A stretch of 28,443 nucleotides of DNA, from positions 1-28,443 of IMG/VR virus record IMGVR_UViG_3300048838_000702; one strand, written 5' to 3'. The position numbers were made by a program, and so were the translations under genes. Below, piece after piece: positions 725 to 17,445 of this stretch. Numbering within the stretch: the stretch's first letter is position 1; the number at the start of each line of letters is the position of its first letter. This DNA comes from a virus. Below the pieces are notes generated by a model, which was not told the origin of the DNA, ran no database searches, and worked only from the letters and a program-made list of their open reading frames with translations.

Positions 725-1214
725 GGCTATTTGTGCTTTCGTTATAGGTGAATGTATGTAACGGAAATCTGTAATGCGTATTGCTTGTGGCTGAGGGGGA
801 TGCGCTTACAAGAATACTGCCATCCATATAGCTATTACGCGCACATTGCGCGTAGACGGTGCATGTTTCTGCAAGTAGCGTAACGTCTACCTGTGGGAAT
901 GTGATGGAACCCAGCCCGTGTTTATGTATCCTTCCAGCAGACACAGTGCAGACGGTCACCGGCGGGTCTTCTTCCGTCTCGCCTGCGTCTTTTGTCAATG
1001 CGAAGCCGAACGCCCATTTGGAGTAATCGACCCCGCTGCCCGTACCGCCGCCGCCGATGTGCAGTCCGTTCTGCGTCGCCTTGATCCAGAGGCCGTCGAA
1101 CGCCTTGATCCCGTTGAGCAGCGAGCCTAGCGCGTTCCACTGCAAGGCACTGATCGCGTCGCCCTTCTGCAGGTTCGTATCGAACCGGGGTAGCGTGTTG
1201 GAGGTCCGGCCCAT
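666..1214 (-). CDS. Hypothetical tail-region protein, 182 aa
   Basis: I do not recognise the family. The N-terminal 60 residues look like a helical adaptor (LQWNALGSLLNGIKAFDGLWIK), followed by a Gly-rich turn (GGGGTGSGVDYSKW) and a Thr/Val/Ser-rich, beta-like C-terminal half. That arrangement is common in baseplate or tail-tip proteins. Its ATG overlaps the stop of the upstream 130 aa gene by one base (TAATG), and its own 3' end overlaps the start of the lipoprotein-like gene, so it belongs to the tail operon. There is no signal peptide and no membrane segment. Base composition drops toward AT in its 3' half (666-900) and in the next gene, unlike the GC-rich tail genes upstream, which may mean these distal genes were acquired later. 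Confidence 0.7.
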   Translation of the reverse strand: MGRTSNTLPRFDTNLQKGDAISALQWNALGSLLNGIKAFDGLWIKATQNGLHIGGGGTGSGVDYSKWAFGFALTKDAGETEEDPPVTVCTVSAGRIHKHGLGSITFPQVDVTLLAETCTVYAQCARNSYMDGSILVSASPSATSNTHYRFPLHTFTYNESTNSHALQTIHNLGDIHLDTPTM

Positions 1215-1606
1215 TATTCACCGCCCTCGGGTTCCGCCTCCGTGGCGCCGCCTTCCGGCATCCATCCTTCGGGCGCATCGCGCCACATGGAGTAATACTC
1301 CCAGATCTGCCGCTCGCGCCCGAAGGCGGCCGGGTGCTCGTAGGGCTCGACCTTGTCCTTGACGCAGATGTACTTGCCCGCGGTAAACGTGCGGCTGAAG
1401 GTCGTCCCTCCTAGCTGGGCGGAGACGGATGCGGACTCATCGCCGACCTTGCTGTCCCAGAAGGCAACTTCTGCCGCCGTCAACAGGCGCGAGCGGGCAA
1501 ACACGTAATGATCGCGGATCTGTATCTTGACGACCTCCTCGCCCTCGACCACGTCGTTCACGTCCAGCGTGTCGTCCCAGTCATCCAACACCCACGGTTC
1601 ACTCAT
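1214..1606 (-). CDS. Hypothetical tail protein, 130 aa, acidic
   Basis: Family not recognised. The protein opens with a very acidic stretch (MSEPWVLDDWDDTLDVNDVVEGEE), has a mixed alpha/beta middle, and ends in a Glu/Gly-rich tail (GGATEAEPEGGE). Its start codon overlaps the stop of the tape measure gene (ATGA, 1603-1606) and its stop overlaps the next start (TAATG), so it is translationally coupled on both sides. In siphophage tail operons this position, just downstream of the tape measure, is usually a distal tail or tail-tip protein, but 130 residues is short for a Dit protein. The reading frame is well supported by the coupling; the role is unknown. Confidence 0.75.
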   Translation of the reverse strand: MSEPWVLDDWDDTLDVNDVVEGEEVVKIQIRDHYVFARSRLLTAAEVAFWDSKVGDESASVSAQLGGTTFSRTFTAGKYICVKDKVEPYEHPAAFGRERQIWEYYSMWRDAPEGWMPEGGATEAEPEGGE

Positions 1607-3504
1607 GGCCGCATCCCTCCCGGCGGTTTCTTGTTGATGTCGTCAAGCGTCTTGTCGATCTTCTTGAGCAGGTCAACCTGCTGGACGGCGGGATCCTTGG
1701 CACCGCCGAGCCCCTGGCCGTGAATGCGAGTGAAGATCTCGCCCAGGTCTACGCCCTTGCGTGCCTGTCCTTTCGTCAGCCGTCCGTCGTCGCCGCCCCA
1801 GCCGGTAAGCCCTCGCATATCGCCGTCCATGGTTGGCGCAGCAATGCCGGCAAAGCGGTTGCGCCTGCCCGCCCAGATGCCGCGCTTGCCGGAGACGTCG
1901 CCGTCCGACCAGCCGCGAAGGCCGTCGCTGGGTGCTGGTTTTTCTTTTTCTGGTTTCTCCAGGTAACGCGCGACCAGGTCGTCGTCGGACTGGTTGTCGT
2001 ACTGAGGGATTGCCCGGAAGTACTTCAGTACGCCCTCGCGCGTTGTCAAATCCTTTTCCCCGGTATCACGCCCGGTTCGCGGCTCTGCAAGCGCCGCCTC
2101 GATCGCCGCCCGCTCCGGCTTCACCAGATCCTTGAGATTCGCGATTGCACCTTCAAGACCGCCTTTTTTACCAAGCATTCCCGCCATATCGGCACCGGGA
2201 CGGTAATCACCAGCCAGTAGCTTATCCGGATCGACCCCCAGTTTTCCCAGACCCCTCGCAAACTTCTTGGCACCCTCAATGTCCTTTTTGTCGATCAGTG
2301 AGCGGAATTCCTTTTCAAGGTCGATGTACATCGACGGGTCGGCTTCCAGAGCGCCTTTCAGTTTTCCTGCATCCCAGCCATCGCCATTCATCAGGCCTTT
2401 CATCCCTCCCATAAATCCGCCAAAGCCCGGTTTGGCACTATTGATTGATGCCTTTGCCGCTTCACCAAGAACGCGGCCGAGAATCGGCATCGCCTTCAAT
2501 AGAAGGCTAACCGCCACGCTGGCACCGGCTTTGAATGCCTCCCAGATCACGTCGCCAATTGCCTTCATCACATCGCCGCTCTTGCCTGGCGTGGCCAGCG
2601 CCTTGCCGACCGCGCCGATGTCCATCAGCAGCCCCTTGACCTTGCCCGCCCACTCCTCGATCAGCTTCGATTCCTTGATCTTGTTGATGAACCCGCCGAT
2701 CCCGCGCTCCATGGCACCGAACACCGCAGCCAGCCCGAGCCCCTCGACGATCTGATTGCCGACCTCCACACGGAAGCTCTTGAAGACGGAGACCAGCCCC
2801 ACCCAGCGGTTAGCCAGACTGCTGGAGGTGCGCACGGCATCCCCCTGTGCGTCACTGGTGCCCTTCTGGATCATCTTCAGGCGTACTAGTAGCTTCTGCT
2901 GCTCCGTAAGCGGTTTGTTGGCCTTGCCGAAGCCCATCGCCGCCGCCTCGGCCTTCATGGATGCTTCGGTGATTACCACGCCAAACTTGCGGACGTTCTC
3001 GTGGTTGCCGACGAGTGCCCCGATGATCCGCTCCACCGCCTCGCCGCTGTCGATGTTGGAGAAGCTGCCGATGTCAACACCCAGTGCCGTGATCTCCTGC
3101 GAGAGTTTCGCCGCCTCGCCGCGGGCAATGCCCATCGGGACGAGGGTGTCCTGGATGCTTGCCATCCATCCCCTGACATCGTACTCGCTGCGCTTGGTAC
3201 TGCTGGCGAAGTCCTTTGACCATGCACGCGCGGATCCGGACATGGCCTTGAACACCGCGTCGAACTTGCTTTCCATCTCGCCCACGGCCATGGAGTCCTT
3301 GACCGACCAGATCGCCCCCGCAATCGTGCCGGCAAACCCCACCTGCAGACCGCGCTTCATGATGCTGGCCATTCCGGAGACCATGCCCCCCGCCACCTTC
3401 AGCCCGGCACGCGAGAGCTTGCCAAGGGCACCGATGGCCCCGCCCACGGCGTGCCCGAGCTGGTTCTCACCAAAGATGCGGTACTTCAAATCACGTTTCG
3501 ACAT
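1603..3504 (-). CDS. Tail tape measure protein, 633 aa
   Basis: This protein sets tail length and is carried inside the tail tube. The N-terminal ~290 residues have the familiar tape-measure pattern: Gly/Ala-rich amphipathic helices (GGAIGALGKLSRAGLKVAGG), then a conserved region with a 'GVDIGSFSNIDSGEAVERIIGALVGN' type segment and a 'KLLVRLKMIQKGTSDAQGD' segment. Hydrophobic, possibly membrane-active stretches lie near residues 57-66 and 325-345 (ASVAVSLLLKAMPILG). At about 0.15 nm per residue, the usual rule for tape measures, the tail would be near 95 nm, a short siphovirus tail. The start overlaps the upstream gene by 14 bp and the stop overlaps the next ATG. The family call is strong from the N-terminus, the length and the gene position. 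Confidence 0.88.
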   Translation of the reverse strand: MSKRDLKYRIFGENQLGHAVGGAIGALGKLSRAGLKVAGGMVSGMASIMKRGLQVGFAGTIAGAIWSVKDSMAVGEMESKFDAVFKAMSGSARAWSKDFASSTKRSEYDVRGWMASIQDTLVPMGIARGEAAKLSQEITALGVDIGSFSNIDSGEAVERIIGALVGNHENVRKFGVVITEASMKAEAAAMGFGKANKPLTEQQKLLVRLKMIQKGTSDAQGDAVRTSSSLANRWVGLVSVFKSFRVEVGNQIVEGLGLAAVFGAMERGIGGFINKIKESKLIEEWAGKVKGLLMDIGAVGKALATPGKSGDVMKAIGDVIWEAFKAGASVAVSLLLKAMPILGRVLGEAAKASINSAKPGFGGFMGGMKGLMNGDGWDAGKLKGALEADPSMYIDLEKEFRSLIDKKDIEGAKKFARGLGKLGVDPDKLLAGDYRPGADMAGMLGKKGGLEGAIANLKDLVKPERAAIEAALAEPRTGRDTGEKDLTTREGVLKYFRAIPQYDNQSDDDLVARYLEKPEKEKPAPSDGLRGWSDGDVSGKRGIWAGRRNRFAGIAAPTMDGDMRGLTGWGGDDGRLTKGQARKGVDLGEIFTRIHGQGLGGAKDPAVQQVDLLKKIDKTLDDINKKPPGGMRP

Positions 3505-4231
3505 GTGGCGCCCTTTCCTTTACGATCCGGTCGCGCAGCGCGATCAGCGTATTCATGGCCCGGAACTCATACGAATCCGCCGAAACCATCGGCTTCTTTT
3601 CGGCCTTCGCAAATTCCTTTCGCTCGGCCTCACCGCGTTCGCCCATCACCGAGAGCTTGGACTCCACCTCGTCATTGCCGGCAATCCACAGCCAGTGGTC
3701 GTGATCCTTGCCGTACTCCCTCACCAGGGTTTCTAGCAGCAGGTGCAGACCCATGCCGCCGCCGTTCGCTCCCGCCACCGCCTTGAGCACGGCGTACTCG
3801 CGCAGCTTCAGCTCGTCGAGTGCCGTCACCAGCTCGATCACCGTGGCATCCATCCGCCGTGCCCACCGGCGCACCAGGCGCAGGAACGCACGCGGGGAGG
3901 GCGGGGACTGCCAGAATGCCGTTTCTTGCGTGTGTGCGGCTGCGTAGGCCTCTGCAAGCCTCACGTCCAGCTCATTGCACGGGACCGCCCCCAGAAGCTC
4001 GCCCAGGACCGCGTCCACGCCGATCGGCAGGCACCGCATCTGTGCGCCGCCCACCGTGACCACGGGAGAGAGCAGCCGACGGGCAAGCGCGGGGTCGGTC
4101 GGCTCCAGCACGCGCCGGGCGCAGAGCATGATCTCGGAAAGCGTCTCCAGGTCGTCGTGCGCATCGAGCACGACTCCCCGGTCGCGTAGTTCGCGGATTG
4201 TCTTGCGGGCAAGTTCAAGGTACCTGTGCAT
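3491..4231 (-). CDS. Probable tail assembly protein in the chaperone position, 246 aa
   Basis: The gene lies between the tail tube and tape measure genes, the slot that holds tail assembly chaperones (lambda gpG/gpGT) in most siphophages. It is largely helical, with a central Arg-rich helix (RAFLRLVRRWARRMDATVIELVTALDEL) and a Lys/Glu-rich C-terminus. The start is supported by a GGAGG 12 bases upstream of the ATG. The gene overlaps the tape measure start by 14 bp, and I saw no obvious heptameric slippery site supporting a frameshifted second product. The function is inferred from position only; the sequence itself is not one I recognise. Confidence 0.72.
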   Translation of the reverse strand: MHRYLELARKTIRELRDRGVVLDAHDDLETLSEIMLCARRVLEPTDPALARRLLSPVVTVGGAQMRCLPIGVDAVLGELLGAVPCNELDVRLAEAYAAAHTQETAFWQSPPSPRAFLRLVRRWARRMDATVIELVTALDELKLREYAVLKAVAGANGGGMGLHLLLETLVREYGKDHDHWLWIAGNDEVESKLSVMGERGEAERKEFAKAEKKPMVSADSYEFRAMNTLIALRDRIVKERAPHVET

Positions 4232-5965: not shown

Positions 5966-6367
5966 CTATTTACGCTTGGCAGAACGCCGACCGGCAATCA
6001 GCATCCCGACCACGGCGGCCAGTCCGGCACCACCAAGCAAAGTGCCGCCGACATTCCGATCGTGCAGGATGCAGACGACGGAACCGGCGATAGCGGCGGT
6101 ACAGATCAGGAATGCGCACAAAAGGCCAGCCCCTCCGTAGAGATGCTCCAGCACCTGCTCGCGGTGCTCCATCTGTCGCCGGTGCAGGCTCTGGTCCTCC
6201 GCCATCTTCATCATGCGTTCTGCCGCACCCGGAAGAATGGCGTTAAACTGCGCGAAATGCTCAGGATGCGGGAGCGGTCCTGAATACCCCTCAAGCCGCT
6301 GGTGCTGCACTTGCACCTGCCGCACACTGGGGGACTGCCTACTTTGCCGCTGCATGCTTCTCGACAT
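5966..6367 (-). CDS. DUF2335 family membrane protein, 133 aa
   Basis: The core segment (HFAQFNAILPGAAERMMKM, then AEDQSLHRRQMEHRE) is the signature of DUF2335 predicted membrane proteins. It is followed by two hydrophobic segments at about residues 78-100 and 107-125 and a basic tail (GRRSAKRK), giving a helical hairpin membrane anchor. The family's function is unknown; members are frequent in prophages. The start at 6367 is chosen because AGGGAG lies just upstream; the frame stays open to 6496 but that extension lies over the upstream gene. The gene overlaps the 67 aa gene by 29 bp and shares its promoter. It interrupts the head-tail gene order, so it looks like an added cargo gene. Superinfection exclusion is possible but is only inference. 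Confidence 0.75.
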   Translation of the reverse strand: MSRSMQRQSRQSPSVRQVQVQHQRLEGYSGPLPHPEHFAQFNAILPGAAERMMKMAEDQSLHRRQMEHREQVLEHLYGGAGLLCAFLICTAAIAGSVVCILHDRNVGGTLLGGAGLAAVVGMLIAGRRSAKRK

Positions 6368-6542
6368 GGTGCTCCCTAGCGAATCCATCAAGCGCAGCCT
6401 GCATATCCTGCCCGACCACCTTCCAGTCGGAAGCCAGCGCGGCGGCATCGGTCGCATAACGGTAGCGACGCTTGCGCGGAGGCAAAGGTCCCGCAAACAT
6501 CATCGCGGCACCCTTGAAAAGATATTTCACTCGTTCGGTCAT
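6339..6542 (-). CDS. Small basic hypothetical protein, 67 aa
   Basis: The start at 6542 follows an AGGGTG six bases upstream. A GTG three codons earlier (6551) is possible but less well placed. The protein begins MTERVKYLFKGAAMMFAGPL, a short amphipathic or weakly hydrophobic stretch, then PPRKRRYRYATDAAALASDWKVVGQDM. It overlaps the DUF2335 gene by 29 bp and is the first gene after the promoter at 6573-6602. Together they form a two-gene unit, so a joint membrane-associated role is plausible. I do not recognise the family. Confidence 0.6.
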   Translation of the reverse strand: MTERVKYLFKGAAMMFAGPLPPRKRRYRYATDAAALASDWKVVGQDMQAALDGFAREHHVEKHAAAK

Positions 6543-6572
6543 GGCAATCACCCTGTTTTTGTTGGTGACGCC

Positions 6573-6606
6573 ATATTAAACCGATCCGCCGGTTAATGTC
6601 AACCGG
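6573..6606 (-). promoter_or_regulatory. Sigma70-type promoter with two overlapping dyads (operator candidate)
   Basis: On the minus strand there is a perfect -35 TTGACA (6597-6602), an 18-base spacer and a -10 TAATAT (6573-6578). The expected start of transcription is about 24 bases before the ATG at 6542. Two inverted repeats cover it: TTAACCG-N6-CGGTTTAA fills the spacer and reaches the -10, and CCGGTT-N6-AACCGG (6589-6606) encloses the -35. A protein bound to either dyad would block the polymerase, so regulated expression of the 67 aa and DUF2335 genes is likely. Confidence 0.6.
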
Positions 6607-6629
6607 GAATGGCCTCCGCAACAATCCGC

Positions 6630-6659
6630 TTGCCATCACACGCCGGAAACAGGCACAAT
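6630..6659 (+). promoter_or_regulatory. Possible weak promoter for the small plus-strand gene
   Basis: TTGCCA (6630-6635), an 18-base spacer and CACAAT (6654-6659) lie 28 bases before the ATG at 6687 on the plus strand. Both boxes are only partial matches to consensus. It is the best candidate in the 144-base divergent intergenic region, which otherwise holds the opposing promoter with its dyads. Confidence 0.28.
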
Positions 6660-6686
6660 GCGAGCAACCAACAAAAGGAGGGTGAT

Positions 6687-6830
6687 ATGTCGGCAAAGAA
6701 ACAAAGCACGAGCAAAACATCAACACTTGCGGCCAAAGTTCTGACAGGTGTCAAGAAACCGACGACCAAGGAGGTAAAGAGTCTGGCGGCTTCCGTGCTT
6801 GGACAAGACGAGAAAAAAGGCAAGCGCTAA
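6687..6830 (+). CDS. Small basic Lys/Ser/Thr-rich protein, 47 aa, opposite strand
   Basis: The start is fixed by a near-perfect AGGAGG six bases before the ATG. The product is highly basic and low in complexity (MSAKKQSTSKTSTLAAKVL ... GQDEKKGKR), resembling small hypothetical proteins often seen in proteobacterial genomes and mobile elements. No catalytic motif is visible; nucleic-acid or acidic-partner binding would fit the charge. It is the only plus-strand gene in the structural region, and its stop abuts the stop of the 82 aa gene (6830/6831) with no spacer. It is therefore transcribed against the late operon, which suggests expression in the lysogen. Confidence 0.7.
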   Translation: MSAKKQSTSKTSTLAAKVLTGVKKPTTKEVKSLAASVLGQDEKKGKR

Positions 6831-7079
6831 TCAACGCAACTTGCGGCGTCCGGTAATGCAGCATTTCGGGATCTGCATCCGGCCGCCGCATTGAGGATTG
6901 TCGTCGGCCAGGTCAGCCATACTCTGCGCCAGCATTATCGCCGATTCATCCTCTGCGACCACGAAACCGACCGACACGCACTCGCACACCCCAAGTGATT
7001 CAATATCATCCATCCGGACCCACGAGGATGAAGGCTGCACGCTGTCAAGCCAACGGATAAGCTCGGGAACACGCTTCAT
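6831..7079 (-). CDS. Small phage/prophage protein, 82 aa
   Basis: The sequence has a pattern I recall from many small phage proteins that lie among structural genes: an N-terminal 'IRWLDSVQPSSSWVRMDDI', then CVSVGFVVAEDESAIMLAQSM, a DNPQCGG turn, and a C-terminal 'MQIPKCCIT'. I know no function for it. No clear ribosome binding site precedes the ATG at 7079, so the start could lie elsewhere. It ends exactly where the opposite-strand 47 aa gene ends. The conserved pattern makes it a real gene. Confidence 0.68.
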   Translation of the reverse strand: MKRVPELIRWLDSVQPSSSWVRMDDIESLGVCECVSVGFVVAEDESAIMLAQSMADLADDNPQCGGRMQIPKCCITGRRKLR

Positions 7080-7126
7080 ACCGATGGCCGCGCGGTCAAG
7101 CCTCTAGCGGCTCGAACCGGATGCCG

Positions 7127-7321
7127 TTAAGTCAAAATATCAGGATCATCCTCGTAGGGATCCTCAATCGGCTCGCCGGTCAGTAGAGCCGTCTTGAGAA
7201 GCTCAAGAAGCCCCTCTTCACCACCGCCATCAAATATGTCTACTGGGCACTCACCAAAGCGTTTCTCGTATAATTTAGACGCTTCCCGTAAGTTCTCGAC
7301 AGTTATGTCTTCAATCTTCAT
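7127..7321 (-). CDS. Small acidic protein downstream of MuF-metallopeptidase, candidate immunity protein, 64 aa
   Basis: Its ATG overlaps the stop of the MuF-metallopeptidase gene (ATGA, 7318-7321). The protein is strongly acidic (about 19 Asp/Glu against 6 Lys/Arg), mostly helical, and ends in EPIEDPYEDDPDILT. Small acidic proteins encoded directly behind a polymorphic toxin domain are commonly their immunity partners, and an acidic C-terminus could block an active-site cleft. It also has an apparent promoter of its own inside the end of the upstream gene (7328-7356), which would let it be made without the late toxin-bearing head gene. Its existence is well supported by coupling; the immunity role is inference, and a small structural role is the alternative. 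Confidence 0.6.
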   Translation of the reverse strand: MKIEDITVENLREASKLYEKRFGECPVDIFDGGGEEGLLELLKTALLTGEPIEDPYEDDPDILT

Positions 7322-9327
7322 AACCCTATACTACTCCTGATCCATTTCATTGTCAACGGCATCATTTCGTCATATTCCGTCCAGTTGTTTATGGCTGCGC
7401 GATAACCGTTTGCATAAACCTCTTTGTACCCCTGTACTCCGTCCAGTTTTTTGTAGTAGGAAACAGGATGTCCTTCACCAAGCGCCCCCTTGCTGATGCC
7501 TCCAAGCGAATCACGCATCCCTATAACCCTTTGCCTTAAATCAATATTCGCCGTGTAATAGTTTTCTACTCCCAGAGCTTTGGCAATCTCTTGTTTATGC
7601 GTCAATGAGTTCCTGTCGTATTCGCTTTTCCATCCGCCACCATGCTTTTCCTTGGCTGTCTTCTTAAACGCATCGTAATCGGCTTCGATCGCCTTGCGCA
7701 GACCTTCATCAATCACACCATCCTTGATCACGCCGGTCTTTGTGTGGATTGCATGGGCAATCTCATGATCGAACACGCTTGGTGCTCCGTACCAATTCAA
7801 CGGATCAGTGTTCATATAGACCTTATGCTCACTTGGTCGGTAAAACGCCTTGTTTTTGTTGCTTCCTTTTTCGGTCTTCGAATCCACCAGCGGCGGCAGG
7901 TCAGGCATCAGCTTCAGTACCTGTTCCGGGATCGCATCAATCCGGGCAAGCAGTGCATCACTGAATCCGGCCTGTTTGGCGGCCTCCTTGTACGCATCAA
8001 GCACCGGATTCGCCTTCGGCTTCTCTGCAACCGCAACCGCCTTCGCCGTCACGTCCACGCCCCGCTTGGTCTGCAGCGAGTAGAACCCCTTGTCGAACTC
8101 CGCCTTGCCCGCCCCGGCACGGTCCAGCACCACCCAGCCGCCCTTGGGAGAGTTGCGCGAGAACGCGGGTTCCTCGCCCTTCTTCGCCAGCCGGAAGTGC
8201 GGCAACTGGTCCAGCCGCATCTGGTCCAGCACATTGTCCGGAATCGCATCGATCGCCTCGTCGAACCGCTCGCTCACCATGCCCGACCGCGCCCTGTCCT
8301 TCAGCCGGTCCCGCATCACCGCCCGCCTGGCCTCCGCTGCCGACATGCCGCCATCGCGGTAGCGCTTCTGGTTGATCCCGTCGGAGTACGCCCTGACCGC
8401 GTCCGGATCCTCCCAGGCACCCGGCGACGGCTGCTCCGCCTGCCGTTTGATCTCGTCGGCTTCCAGATCCTCGTCGATGTACTCCAGCCGGTGCGTGCAG
8501 TTCGGGTGCCACATGCCCGCGTCCAGACTCTGCTGGTACGTCGGGAACCGCCCGCCACCCTCACCGCTACCGGCCACGCGGATAATAACGCCCTGCCACG
8601 CCTCGCAGATGGGGCAGGGGTCGCCAGCGTCAGAGCTGATCCGGGCCAGGGAGAAGCCGTTATCCGCCAGCGTGTCAATCTCCACCTCCCTCGAAACCCG
8701 TTGCATCGTCGTGCGTGTCAGCATCTGGAGGTAGCGGCTGTTCGTCCATTCGTTGCCGCCGCGATCGACAAACCGCCGCCCGCTCTCGTTGCCGGTCTGC
8801 CGGTCCCAGGCCTGCTGCAGCCGCTTGTGTGTCTCGTTGGCCGTCCAGCCCTCGATGACCTGCTGGCGAAAGGTGTCTACCGTCGCGCTTCGCAATTGGC
8901 GAATCGAGGCGTCGGTCATGCTGCGGGTGAAGACGGCCGCCAGGTGCTCACCATTCTGTGCGTTGATCATCTCCTGGTACCGCTGTACCCGCTCCCGGTC
9001 GAACCGCATCAGGGGGAGCTTCTTCCCGGTCGCCTGCATGATCTGCCCGGCCGTCTCTCCCGCCCAGACCGGACCGCCCGTCCTGACGATGTCGCCCAGC
9101 CATTTATCGAAGTCCAGGGAGAGGGAGGCGTAGATGCGCGTTATTTCCGCCTCCAGCGCGTCACGGTGGCGCTTGGATGTGGCGGCCTTGGGATCACGCG
9201 CCATTGATGCGATCTTGCGGTTGGCGCTCTCCTGGGCGGTTCTGAGGCGCTCCTTGAGTTCAGCGGTGCCGGTCGCCTCGATCCGGCGTTCCAGCTTGCG
9301 GATCTGGAATGATGTAAGGCGACTCAT
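7318..9327 (-). CDS. MuF-type minor head protein fused to a C-terminal HExxH metallopeptidase (polymorphic toxin candidate), 669 aa
   Basis: The N-terminal ~300 residues are a phage head morphogenesis (Mu gpF / SPP1 gp7) protein: helical start, then the Cys/His cluster CPIC (238-241) and HPNCTH (274-279), the metal-binding end of the MuF domain. Such proteins are packaged in the capsid and may enter the cell with DNA. The C-terminal part carries DHEIAHAIH with HExxH at 521-525, and a later KEVYANGYRAAI segment whose Glu-636 could be the third zinc ligand. This matches zinc metallopeptidase domains used as toxins in MuF polymorphic toxins. The start at 9327 is chosen for the AGGAG upstream; the frame stays open to 9375. 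An internal repeat near residues 352-412 and 458-510 suggests domain turnover. The head call is strong, the protease call good from the motif, and the toxin role inferred. Confidence 0.85.
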   Translation of the reverse strand: MSRLTSFQIRKLERRIEATGTAELKERLRTAQESANRKIASMARDPKAATSKRHRDALEAEITRIYASLSLDFDKWLGDIVRTGGPVWAGETAGQIMQATGKKLPLMRFDRERVQRYQEMINAQNGEHLAAVFTRSMTDASIRQLRSATVDTFRQQVIEGWTANETHKRLQQAWDRQTGNESGRRFVDRGGNEWTNSRYLQMLTRTTMQRVSREVEIDTLADNGFSLARISSDAGDPCPICEAWQGVIIRVAGSGEGGGRFPTYQQSLDAGMWHPNCTHRLEYIDEDLEADEIKRQAEQPSPGAWEDPDAVRAYSDGINQKRYRDGGMSAAEARRAVMRDRLKDRARSGMVSERFDEAIDAIPDNVLDQMRLDQLPHFRLAKKGEEPAFSRNSPKGGWVVLDRAGAGKAEFDKGFYSLQTKRGVDVTAKAVAVAEKPKANPVLDAYKEAAKQAGFSDALLARIDAIPEQVLKLMPDLPPLVDSKTEKGSNKNKAFYRPSEHKVYMNTDPLNWYGAPSVFDHEIAHAIHTKTGVIKDGVIDEGLRKAIEADYDAFKKTAKEKHGGGWKSEYDRNSLTHKQEIAKALGVENYYTANIDLRQRVIGMRDSLGGISKGALGEGHPVSYYKKLDGVQGYKEVYANGYRAAINNWTEYDEMMPLTMKWIRSSIGL
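7328..7356 (-). promoter_or_regulatory. Sigma70-like promoter inside the 3' end of the MuF gene
   Basis: On the minus strand a perfect -35 TTGACA (7351-7356), a 17-base spacer and a -10 TAGTAT (7328-7333) precede the 64 aa gene. Only six bases separate the -10 from the ATG, so the transcript would begin at or next to the start codon and be leaderless. These bases also encode the last residues of the MuF protein, so a chance match is possible. Confidence 0.4.
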
Positions 9328-16395: not shown

Positions 16396-17445
16396 ATGGC
16401 AAGCATTGTGTGGAGAGCAGACCGGGGGAAGTGGTATGCCTATTACCACATAAACGGGAAGCATACCGGGACGCCGATCCCGGAGGCACCCGCGCGCAAG
16501 ACGCTGTCCAAGCACGAGCGGGCATTGCTTCAGGCCGAGGCCGAACGAATCGCCGAGGGGAAGCGGGACGTGGCGATTACAGAGATCGACATTGAGACGG
16601 CTTCGGCCTTCTGGCTGGATGACGTCAAAGCAACGTGCTCACTGCGGACATACGAACGCTACAGGACAACGGCAAAGCTGTTTCTTGACTATCTTGTGCC
16701 TGTCGGAAAACGGATACCAGCAACAAATGTGACCATGAGTTCAATCCGAGGGTTTAGGGATAACCGGCTTAACGGACACGCGGCATCGACGGTCATCAAT
16801 GACTTGAAATGCCTGCATGCCATGTTCGAGTGGATCAGGAAGCAGCGGACAGGCGGCATCCGGTGGATACCGGAGAACCCGTGCGAGGATGTCGATTATC
16901 CGAAGCGAGCAGTCAGGAATGTCGTGTTCCCGACTGACACGGAAGTCGGGAAGATGCTGGCCGCCCTAGTTGATAAACCGGTCGAGTTCAAGGCACTCGG
17001 TACGCTGGGTGCGTTCGCGGGTATGCGCCGCAACGAAATCATCCTGCTTCGGTGGGACTGGGTAGACCTCGATCGCGGTTTGATCTATGCCCACGGCAAG
17101 AGCAAGCAGCCCCGTCCGATCCCGATTCACCCGAAGGTCAGAGTGCTTCTGGACAACATACCTCGGTTGGGTGATCTTGTGCTCCCGTCGCCGTATGCAG
17201 CAACCGGGCAGCAGCGAAGCCCGTTCGTGGCCCGCGAGTTCAACGACTGGCTTCGGGATCTTGGATTCAGGTGGACGCATCACGGTCTTCGACGGTGGTT
17301 CAATGACAGGCTGCGACAATCTACCGGATTGACCGCCTCGGCACGAAGGCTTGTGGTAGGTCACGAGGACGAGGCGACGAACCGGCTGTACCAGAATCCG
17401 CAGGCGGAGGAAGCCCGTCCGTTCGTGGAGGCTCTAGCGCCTTGA
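16396..17445 (+). CDS. int: Tyrosine recombinase (phage integrase), 349 aa
   Basis: It carries out site-specific recombination between attP and a host tRNA gene. The N-terminal ~60 residues form an arm-binding-like domain (WRADRGKWYAYYHINGKHTG), followed by a SAM-like core-binding domain (65-170) and the catalytic domain. Visible catalytic residues are Arg-211 (GMRRNE), Lys-235 (HGKSK), His-296/Arg-299 (HHGLRR), His-323 (GHED) and Tyr-332 (LYQNP). The start has GGGGAGGG five bases upstream. It is the only long plus-strand gene in the window. Its last 125 bases overlap, antisense, the excisionase-like gene. Confidence 0.95.
   Translation: MASIVWRADRGKWYAYYHINGKHTGTPIPEAPARKTLSKHERALLQAEAERIAEGKRDVAITEIDIETASAFWLDDVKATCSLRTYERYRTTAKLFLDYLVPVGKRIPATNVTMSSIRGFRDNRLNGHAASTVINDLKCLHAMFEWIRKQRTGGIRWIPENPCEDVDYPKRAVRNVVFPTDTEVGKMLAALVDKPVEFKALGTLGAFAGMRRNEIILLRWDWVDLDRGLIYAHGKSKQPRPIPIHPKVRVLLDNIPRLGDLVLPSPYAATGQQRSPFVAREFNDWLRDLGFRWTHHGLRRWFNDRLRQSTGLTASARRLVVGHEDEATNRLYQNPQAEEARPFVEALAP

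What the first reader, a model, noticed from the sequence alone, without database searches (positions are those of the whole stretch)
7127..9327. MuF head protein carrying a metallopeptidase toxin-like domain, with a small acidic candidate immunity gene
The minor head protein ends in a domain with HExxH and a downstream E-x-x-A segment, and is followed by a coupled 64 aa acidic ORF. MuF proteins with C-terminal polymorphic toxin domains are established in temperate phages; this pairing fits a toxin delivered with or made alongside virions and a protector made by the lysogen. The immunity claim is inference from position, charge and coupling.
Basis: partly seen in the sequence, partly recalled or inferred. 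Interest (0 to 1): 0.6.

Follow-up and report, generated by a model that had tools for sequence, protein, structure and literature searches.

The report
Phage head protein carrying protease toxin
A temperate phage's minor head protein ends in a swappable metal-dependent protease domain and is followed by a small gene that travels with that domain, which fits a known class of phage toxin with a self-protection gene, although nobody has tested this pair for killing or protection.

Summary
Window 9327..7318 (-) encodes a 669-aa minor head protein (Phage_min_cap2/MuF) with HEIAH at residues 521-525 and a conserved EVYAN glutamate at 636. A 64-aa ORF (7321..7127) overlaps its stop codon. AlphaFold2 with 11 aligned sequences folds residues 446-669 as a zincin (pLDDT 84.7; best structural matches lethal-factor catalytic domain, Z 10.4, and PPEP-1). 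Residue ~430 to the end of the 64-aa gene is a foreign cassette: GC3 drops from 0.86 to 0.54 where a 64%-identical sister MuF (L002) stops, and a relic (GIRFEPL) of the sister's different small gene lies just behind the 64-aa stop. The domain also sits on other MuF carriers, and its two closest relatives each carry a homologous overlapping small gene. Small-gene clades mirror toxin-domain clades. An orphan homologue stands alone in a bacterial genome. None of the fetched MuF genes without this domain has a clear homologue. The phage carries an integrase. Best reading: a MuF polymorphic toxin of the metallopeptidase type with its immunity gene, a known kind (Jamet 2017) but a domain family not named in Pfam or NCBIfam. 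Toxicity, target and neutralisation are untested.

The parts
7318..9327 (-). 669-aa minor head (MuF) protein with C-terminal zincin domain
   Evidence: ORF and PF06152 match; C-terminal homologues and fold
8056..9327 (-). Carrier part, residues 1-424, shared at 64% identity with the toxin-less sister MuF of L002
7321..8037 (-). Acquired C-terminal part, residues 431-669: linker and zincin protease domain (toxin candidate); low GC3
   Evidence: GC3 change point after residue 430, LLR 48 against at most 8.4 in 500 shuffles; AF2 and VIA-align
7753..7767 (-). HEIAH zinc-binding/catalytic motif, residues 521-525
   Evidence: invariant H, E, H in 11 homologues; coordinates
7453..7479 (-). GEGHPVSYY motif, residues 617-625
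   Evidence: G, G, H, Y, Y invariant in 11 homologues; coordinates
7408..7425 (-). KEVYAN motif, residues 635-640; Glu636 is the expected third zinc ligand
   Evidence: Glu and Ala invariant in 11 homologues; coordinates
7127..7321 (-). 64-aa candidate immunity gene, overlapping the MuF stop by 4 bases
   Evidence: homologues behind the two closest toxin domains (L053, L012) and one orphan
7105..7125 (-). Relic GIRFEPL of the end of the small gene that follows the MuF in sister phage L002; right edge of the cassette
   Evidence: 7 of 7 residues identical, base differences synonymous, only 7-mer identity in six frames; DNA match p about 0.001
7328..7356 (-). Promoter-like TTGACA-17-TAGTAT ending 6 bases before the ATG of the 64-aa gene (weak evidence)
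16396..17445 (+). Integrase (PF00589), marking a temperate phage

Best explanation
A MuF polymorphic toxin with its immunity gene. The N-terminal 424 residues are the minor head protein that places the polypeptide in the virion. The C-terminal ~240 residues are a zinc protease of the lethal-factor/PPEP-like fold, thought to be injected with the DNA (or freed on lysis) and to cleave a cytoplasmic protein of the recipient bacterium. The overlapping 64-aa gene makes a small protein that binds and blocks the protease and so protects the producing lysogen. Shown here by computation: the carrier, the fold and conserved active-site residues, joint acquisition of domain and small gene, their co-occurrence and parallel divergence, and the integrase. 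Inferred: packaging, injection, proteolysis of a bacterial target, and neutralisation by binding.
For: Zincin fold at pLDDT 84.7 and Z 10.4 with invariant active-site residues. Domain and 64-aa gene form one foreign cassette whose two edges match the toxin-less sister L002. Same domain on different MuF carrier families. Homologous overlapping small genes behind the two closest domains, one on an unrelated carrier. Small-gene clades mirror toxin clades, Mantel p 0.004 or less. Orphan small gene in a genome without the protease. Other C-termini, such as an ADP-ribosyltransferase, with other downstream genes on the same carrier family. Integrase. Published precedents for MuF toxins with metallopeptidase domains and for tested MuF toxin-immunity pairs (PMC5576092; PMC11699363).
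Against: No toxicity, substrate, packaging or binding data. Foldseek E-values to solved structures are weak. Small-gene homology outside the window/L053/L012/G629 group is not secure. The overlapping position alone is not diagnostic, since L002 has it with an unrelated gene.
Confidence: 0.76

Rival explanations
1. Injected effector of the polyvalent-protein kind: the zincin is delivered with the DNA to cut a host defence or regulatory protein and help infection, not to kill competitors. The 64-aa protein is a dedicated inhibitor or chaperone that keeps the protease off during assembly.
For: Zincins are the commonest domain of phage polyvalent proteins and MuF is one of their hubs (PMC5512222). 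Weak MPTase-PolyVal similarity in L012 and L014.
Against: The carrier family in related hosts swaps this domain for an ADP-ribosyltransferase and other domains, each with another downstream gene, and an orphan small gene stands alone in a bacterial genome, both of which fit toxin-immunity better. The window protein has one effector domain, not a multi-domain array.
Confidence: 0.14
2. Virion-processing protease: the zincin trims head or portal proteins, or the MuF protein itself, during assembly, and the small gene is a morphogenesis accessory.
For: Zincins can process phage proteins and release effectors by autoproteolysis (PMC5512222). The gene lies in the head operon.
Against: Sister phage L002 has the same head-neck-tail gene set and a MuF that lacks the domain. 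The domain and the small gene are foreign in composition and occur on unrelated head types.
Confidence: 0.06
3. The protector is one of the other genes between MuF and neck (82-aa gene or DUF2335 protein), and the 64-aa gene is a neutral hitch-hiker.
For: These genes are absent from L002. Studied MuF toxins can have two immunity proteins (PMC11699363).
Against: In L053 only the 67-aa homologue lies between toxin and neck. The 64-aa gene is inside the low-GC3 cassette; the others lie outside it, beyond the relic.
Confidence: 0.04

Closest known systems
MuF polymorphic toxins of temperate phages (Jamet et al. 2017, PMC5576092)
   Same: MuF carrier with a C-terminal toxin-like extension, short MuF relatives without it, small downstream ORF, temperate phage; 20% of the reported MuF toxins have a metallopeptidase domain
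   Different: This domain is not recognised by Pfam or NCBIfam, and its small partner is not in any family searched
Bxa and Apk2 MuF toxins with immunity proteins (PMC11699363)
   Same: Prophage MuF toxin with adjacent small non-enzymatic immunity protein
   Different: Bxa is an ADP-ribosyltransferase and Apk2 an alarmone synthetase, both tested; this is a predicted protease, untested
Lethal-factor/PPEP-like zincins (Tox-ALFMetallopeptidase of Zhang et al. 2012, PMC3482391)
   Same: Predicted fold, HExxH, downstream Glu in an E-x-F/Y-A helix
   Different: About 10-17% identity; listed there with other delivery systems (PVC, T2SS), not MuF
Polyvalent-protein zincins (MPTase-PolyVal, PF18818; PMC5512222)
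   Same: Zincin linked to MuF in proteins thought to be delivered with phage DNA
   Different: Only sub-threshold similarity in two homologues; one effector domain here, plus a dedicated small gene

Membership tests
MuF polymorphic toxin | N-terminal MuF/minor capsid domain | tested here: met
   PF06152 48.9 bits, cut-off 26.3
MuF polymorphic toxin | C-terminal extension swapped at a fixed boundary among relatives | tested here: met
   L002 stops at the boundary; GC3 change point at residue 430; other C-termini on the same carrier family
MuF polymorphic toxin | Same C-terminal domain on different N-terminal carriers | tested here: met
   Phage_min_cap2 carriers (window, L053, L013, L014), Phage_Mu_F carriers (L012, L046, L052, L056), Mu portal-MuF fusion (L057)
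MuF polymorphic toxin | Cognate small gene immediately downstream that travels with the domain | tested here: met
MuF polymorphic toxin | Encoded by a temperate phage | tested here: met
   integrase PF00589 over cut-off
MuF polymorphic toxin | Toxic to bacteria, neutralised by the small protein | not testable with these tools
   needs expression and rescue experiments
Zincin metallopeptidase | HExxH plus a third zinc ligand | tested here: met
   H521, E522, H525 and Glu636 invariant in 11 homologues; ligand role of Glu636 inferred
Zincin metallopeptidase | Zincin fold | tested here: met
   AF2 pLDDT 84.7; VIA-align Z 10.4 over 143 residues to the lethal-factor catalytic domain
Zincin metallopeptidase | Zinc-dependent proteolysis | not testable with these tools
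   needs an assay
Lethal factor / PPEP family (M34-like) | Family-level sequence similarity | tested here: inconclusive
   profile against PDB sequences: lethal factor E 0.043; Foldseek E 0.6 and above
MPTase-PolyVal (PF18818) / polyvalent protein | Match to the Pfam domain over cut-off | tested here: not met
   no hit for the window protein; E 0.058 and 0.019 in L012 and L014, below cut-off

The most novel reading that the evidence does not exclude
The domain and its small partner form an uncatalogued protease toxin-immunity family that moves as a cassette among several MuF carriers, including one fused to a portal protein. The immunity gene is either co-directional or, in L039/L040/L050, convergent to the late operon, where it could be expressed in lysogens independently of late genes; orphan immunity genes persist in host genomes.
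Probability: 0.55. Interest if true: 0.55.

Novelty: new member of a known kind. Interest (0 to 1): 0.45.

Why it matters
MuF toxins are widespread in temperate phages, but few have been studied, and none with a protease domain in the papers read here. This locus is a clean natural experiment: a sister phage with the same head and no toxin, sharp cassette edges, a confident model of the protease, and a small gene family that can be searched for and tested for immunity. It would help to show how a packaged phage toxin benefits a lysogen.

Tried and rejected
Single-sequence AF2 of the domain gave pLDDT 39 and was dropped once homologues were found. Direct searches with the domain or the small proteins in viral contigs, phage and plasmid collections, and with the domain in PDB sequences, gave nothing usable. 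Peptidase_M91 (E 0.045) and M78/M90 hits were sub-threshold or hit only some members and were not used for filing. L016, L019-L022 and L033 were weak or partial matches and were set aside. Acidity was rejected as immunity evidence. An overlapping small gene was rejected as evidence by itself, because L002 has one too. The small genes of L013-L015, L038 and L045 could not be shown to be homologous to the window's. A conserved promoter for the small gene was not supported beyond a TTGACA in L053. The host phylum could not be named.

Full report
The observation. On the minus strand, ATG 9327 to stop 7318 encodes 669 aa, and a 64-aa ORF (7321..7127) overlaps the stop by four bases. Residues 137-280 match Phage_min_cap2 (48.9 bits, cut-off 26.3), and PHROGs name the N-terminal part a minor head protein. 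HEIAH is at residues 521-525 and KEVYAN at 635-640. Neither the C-terminal region nor the 64-aa protein reaches a Pfam or NCBIfam cut-off; PHROGs give only a weak partial match of the C-terminus to phrog_4728. The window is a virus record with portal, terminase, coat and neck genes and an integrase at 16396-17445.

A sister phage without the domain. Only one close MuF relative was found among viral contigs by direct search, L002. It keeps the gene order, with about 40-90% identity across most head, neck and tail genes. Its MuF is 64% identical up to residue 424 and then ends within a few residues. It is followed by an overlapping 59-aa gene of another family (phrog_33375) and then the neck gene. 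The head can therefore be built without the domain, and an overlapping small gene by itself is not evidence of immunity.

A foreign cassette. GC at third codon positions is 0.86 for residues 1-430 and 0.54 from there to the end of the 64-aa gene. The change point falls after residue 430 (window 8037), with a log-likelihood ratio of 48 against at most 8.4 in 500 shuffles. The genes around it range from 0.66 to 0.82, and the 64-aa gene is 0.48. Directly behind the 64-aa stop, 7125..7105 reads GIRFEPL, identical at 7 of 7 residues to the end of L002's 59-aa gene, with all base differences synonymous. It is the only 7-residue identity to that protein in six frames of the window; the DNA match has p about 0.001 against random windows. 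So the C-terminal domain and the 64-aa gene replaced the older gene end as one unit.

Relatives of the domain. Searching 388 genomes of the phylum of the genome that holds L005 gave L012-L015, MuF proteins with the same kind of C-terminal domain. A DNA motif for the D..G.(I/L)TxGxYGxGH signature then found about nine further distinct MuF proteins in viral contigs. An alignment of eleven sequences has invariant HExxH residues, D, the GxGH and YY residues, a Glu and an Ala. The carriers belong to different families: Phage_min_cap2 (window, L053, L013, L014), Phage_Mu_F (L012, L046, L052, L056) and a Mu portal-MuF fusion of 958 residues (L057).

Fold. AlphaFold2 of residues 446-669 with the eleven-sequence alignment gives pLDDT 84.7 and pTM 0.85. 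VIA-align gives Z 10.4 (3.2 A over 143 residues) to the catalytic domain of lethal factor, 10.2 to Certhrax and about 9 to PPEP-1. The best match among predicted viral proteins is a minor capsid protein (TM 0.67 on the query). Foldseek E-values to solved structures are weak (0.6 and above). This supports a zincin fold of the lethal-factor/PPEP kind, but not membership in that family, and no substrate can be read from it.

The small gene. Most complete loci with the domain have a short ORF overlapping or abutting the MuF stop: 58-80 aa in L012-L015, L045, L046, L052, L053, L056 and L057, and 111-127 aa in L034 and L032. In L039, L040 and L050 a homologous trio of small genes lies convergent, overlapping the 3' end of the MuF gene by about 15 bases. 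The window's protein matches L053's (z 5-5.6) and L012's (z about 4), with unrelated controls near 0. These two also have the closest toxin domains. [quoted passage not shown] Across 14 loci toxin similarity and small-gene similarity correlate (Spearman 0.39; no permutation of 3000 reached it, or p 0.004 after removing two of the close trio), and nearest neighbours mostly agree. Linked genes diverge together by descent, so this test alone is not proof of co-evolution. A profile of the three small proteins was run on 388 and 198 genomes, two sets that overlap. It found L012 itself and one credible new hit, a stand-alone gene in G629 (z 8.8 to the window, 14.7 to L053), in a genome where the protease profile found nothing. 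That is how orphan immunity genes look.

Control loci. In 198 genomes of one class, 13 Phage_min_cap2 MuF matches were found. Nine without this domain were fetched. Their C-termini include an ADP-ribosyltransferase (L089, PF03496 at its cut-off, 23.3 against 23.4 bits) and HExxH-bearing domains of other sequence (L092, L093, L095); the rest were not identified. One locus ends with its contig; the other eight are followed by other genes. None resembles the window's 64-aa protein (z at most 1.5) except a borderline 3.6 behind L095, itself an HExxH protein.

Mechanism and ranking. The best explanation is a MuF polymorphic toxin of the metallopeptidase type with its cognate immunity gene (0.76). 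An injected anti-defence effector with a dedicated inhibitor is the main rival (0.14). Head processing is unlikely because the sister phage does without the domain. Packaging, injection, proteolysis of a bacterial target and neutralisation by binding are inferences from published MuF toxins (PMC5576092; PMC11699363). A promoter-like TTGACA-17-TAGTAT ends six bases before the small gene's ATG; it could allow expression in a lysogen but is only a consensus match.

Novelty. Jamet et al. [quoted passage not shown] This is therefore a new member of a known kind. What appears new, as far as the libraries and papers searched show, is this domain family and its co-diverging small partner.

Noticed in passing
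window 5966-7079: Between the cassette and the neck gene the window has genes that L002 lacks: an 82-aa ORF (homologue in L014, E 9e-7) and a DUF2335 membrane protein of a moron-type PHROG (phrog_3996).
   Followed up: partly
window 6609-6830 (+): Small lysine-rich ORF on the strand opposite to the head genes, beside the DUF2335 gene; possibly an independently expressed moron.
   Followed up: no
L057 9142-12018 (-), L058: A single 958-residue ORF joins a Mu-type portal protein (PF06074), a Phage_Mu_F domain and the zincin domain, so the portal itself seems to carry the toxin candidate.
   Followed up: partly
L039 2085-2288 (+), L040 4054-4269 (-), L050 about 1192-1452 (-): Three homologous small genes convergent to the MuF-zincin gene, overlapping its 3' end by about 15 bases; an immunity candidate outside the late operon.
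   Followed up: partly
L078 about 6409-6597 (+): Orphan homologue of the 64-aa gene in a bacterial genome contig without MuF or zincin nearby, behind a gene resembling translation initiation factor SUI1.
   Followed up: partly
L089, L092, L093, L095, L096: Phage_min_cap2 MuF proteins of one host class with varied C-termini (ADP-ribosyltransferase, other HExxH domains, unidentified), each followed by its own small gene: further MuF toxin candidates.
   Followed up: partly
L036 about 3310-4125 (-): Stand-alone copy of the domain (HEYGH and EIFAN but no GxGH..YY) without a MuF part or a small gene; looks degenerate.
   Followed up: no
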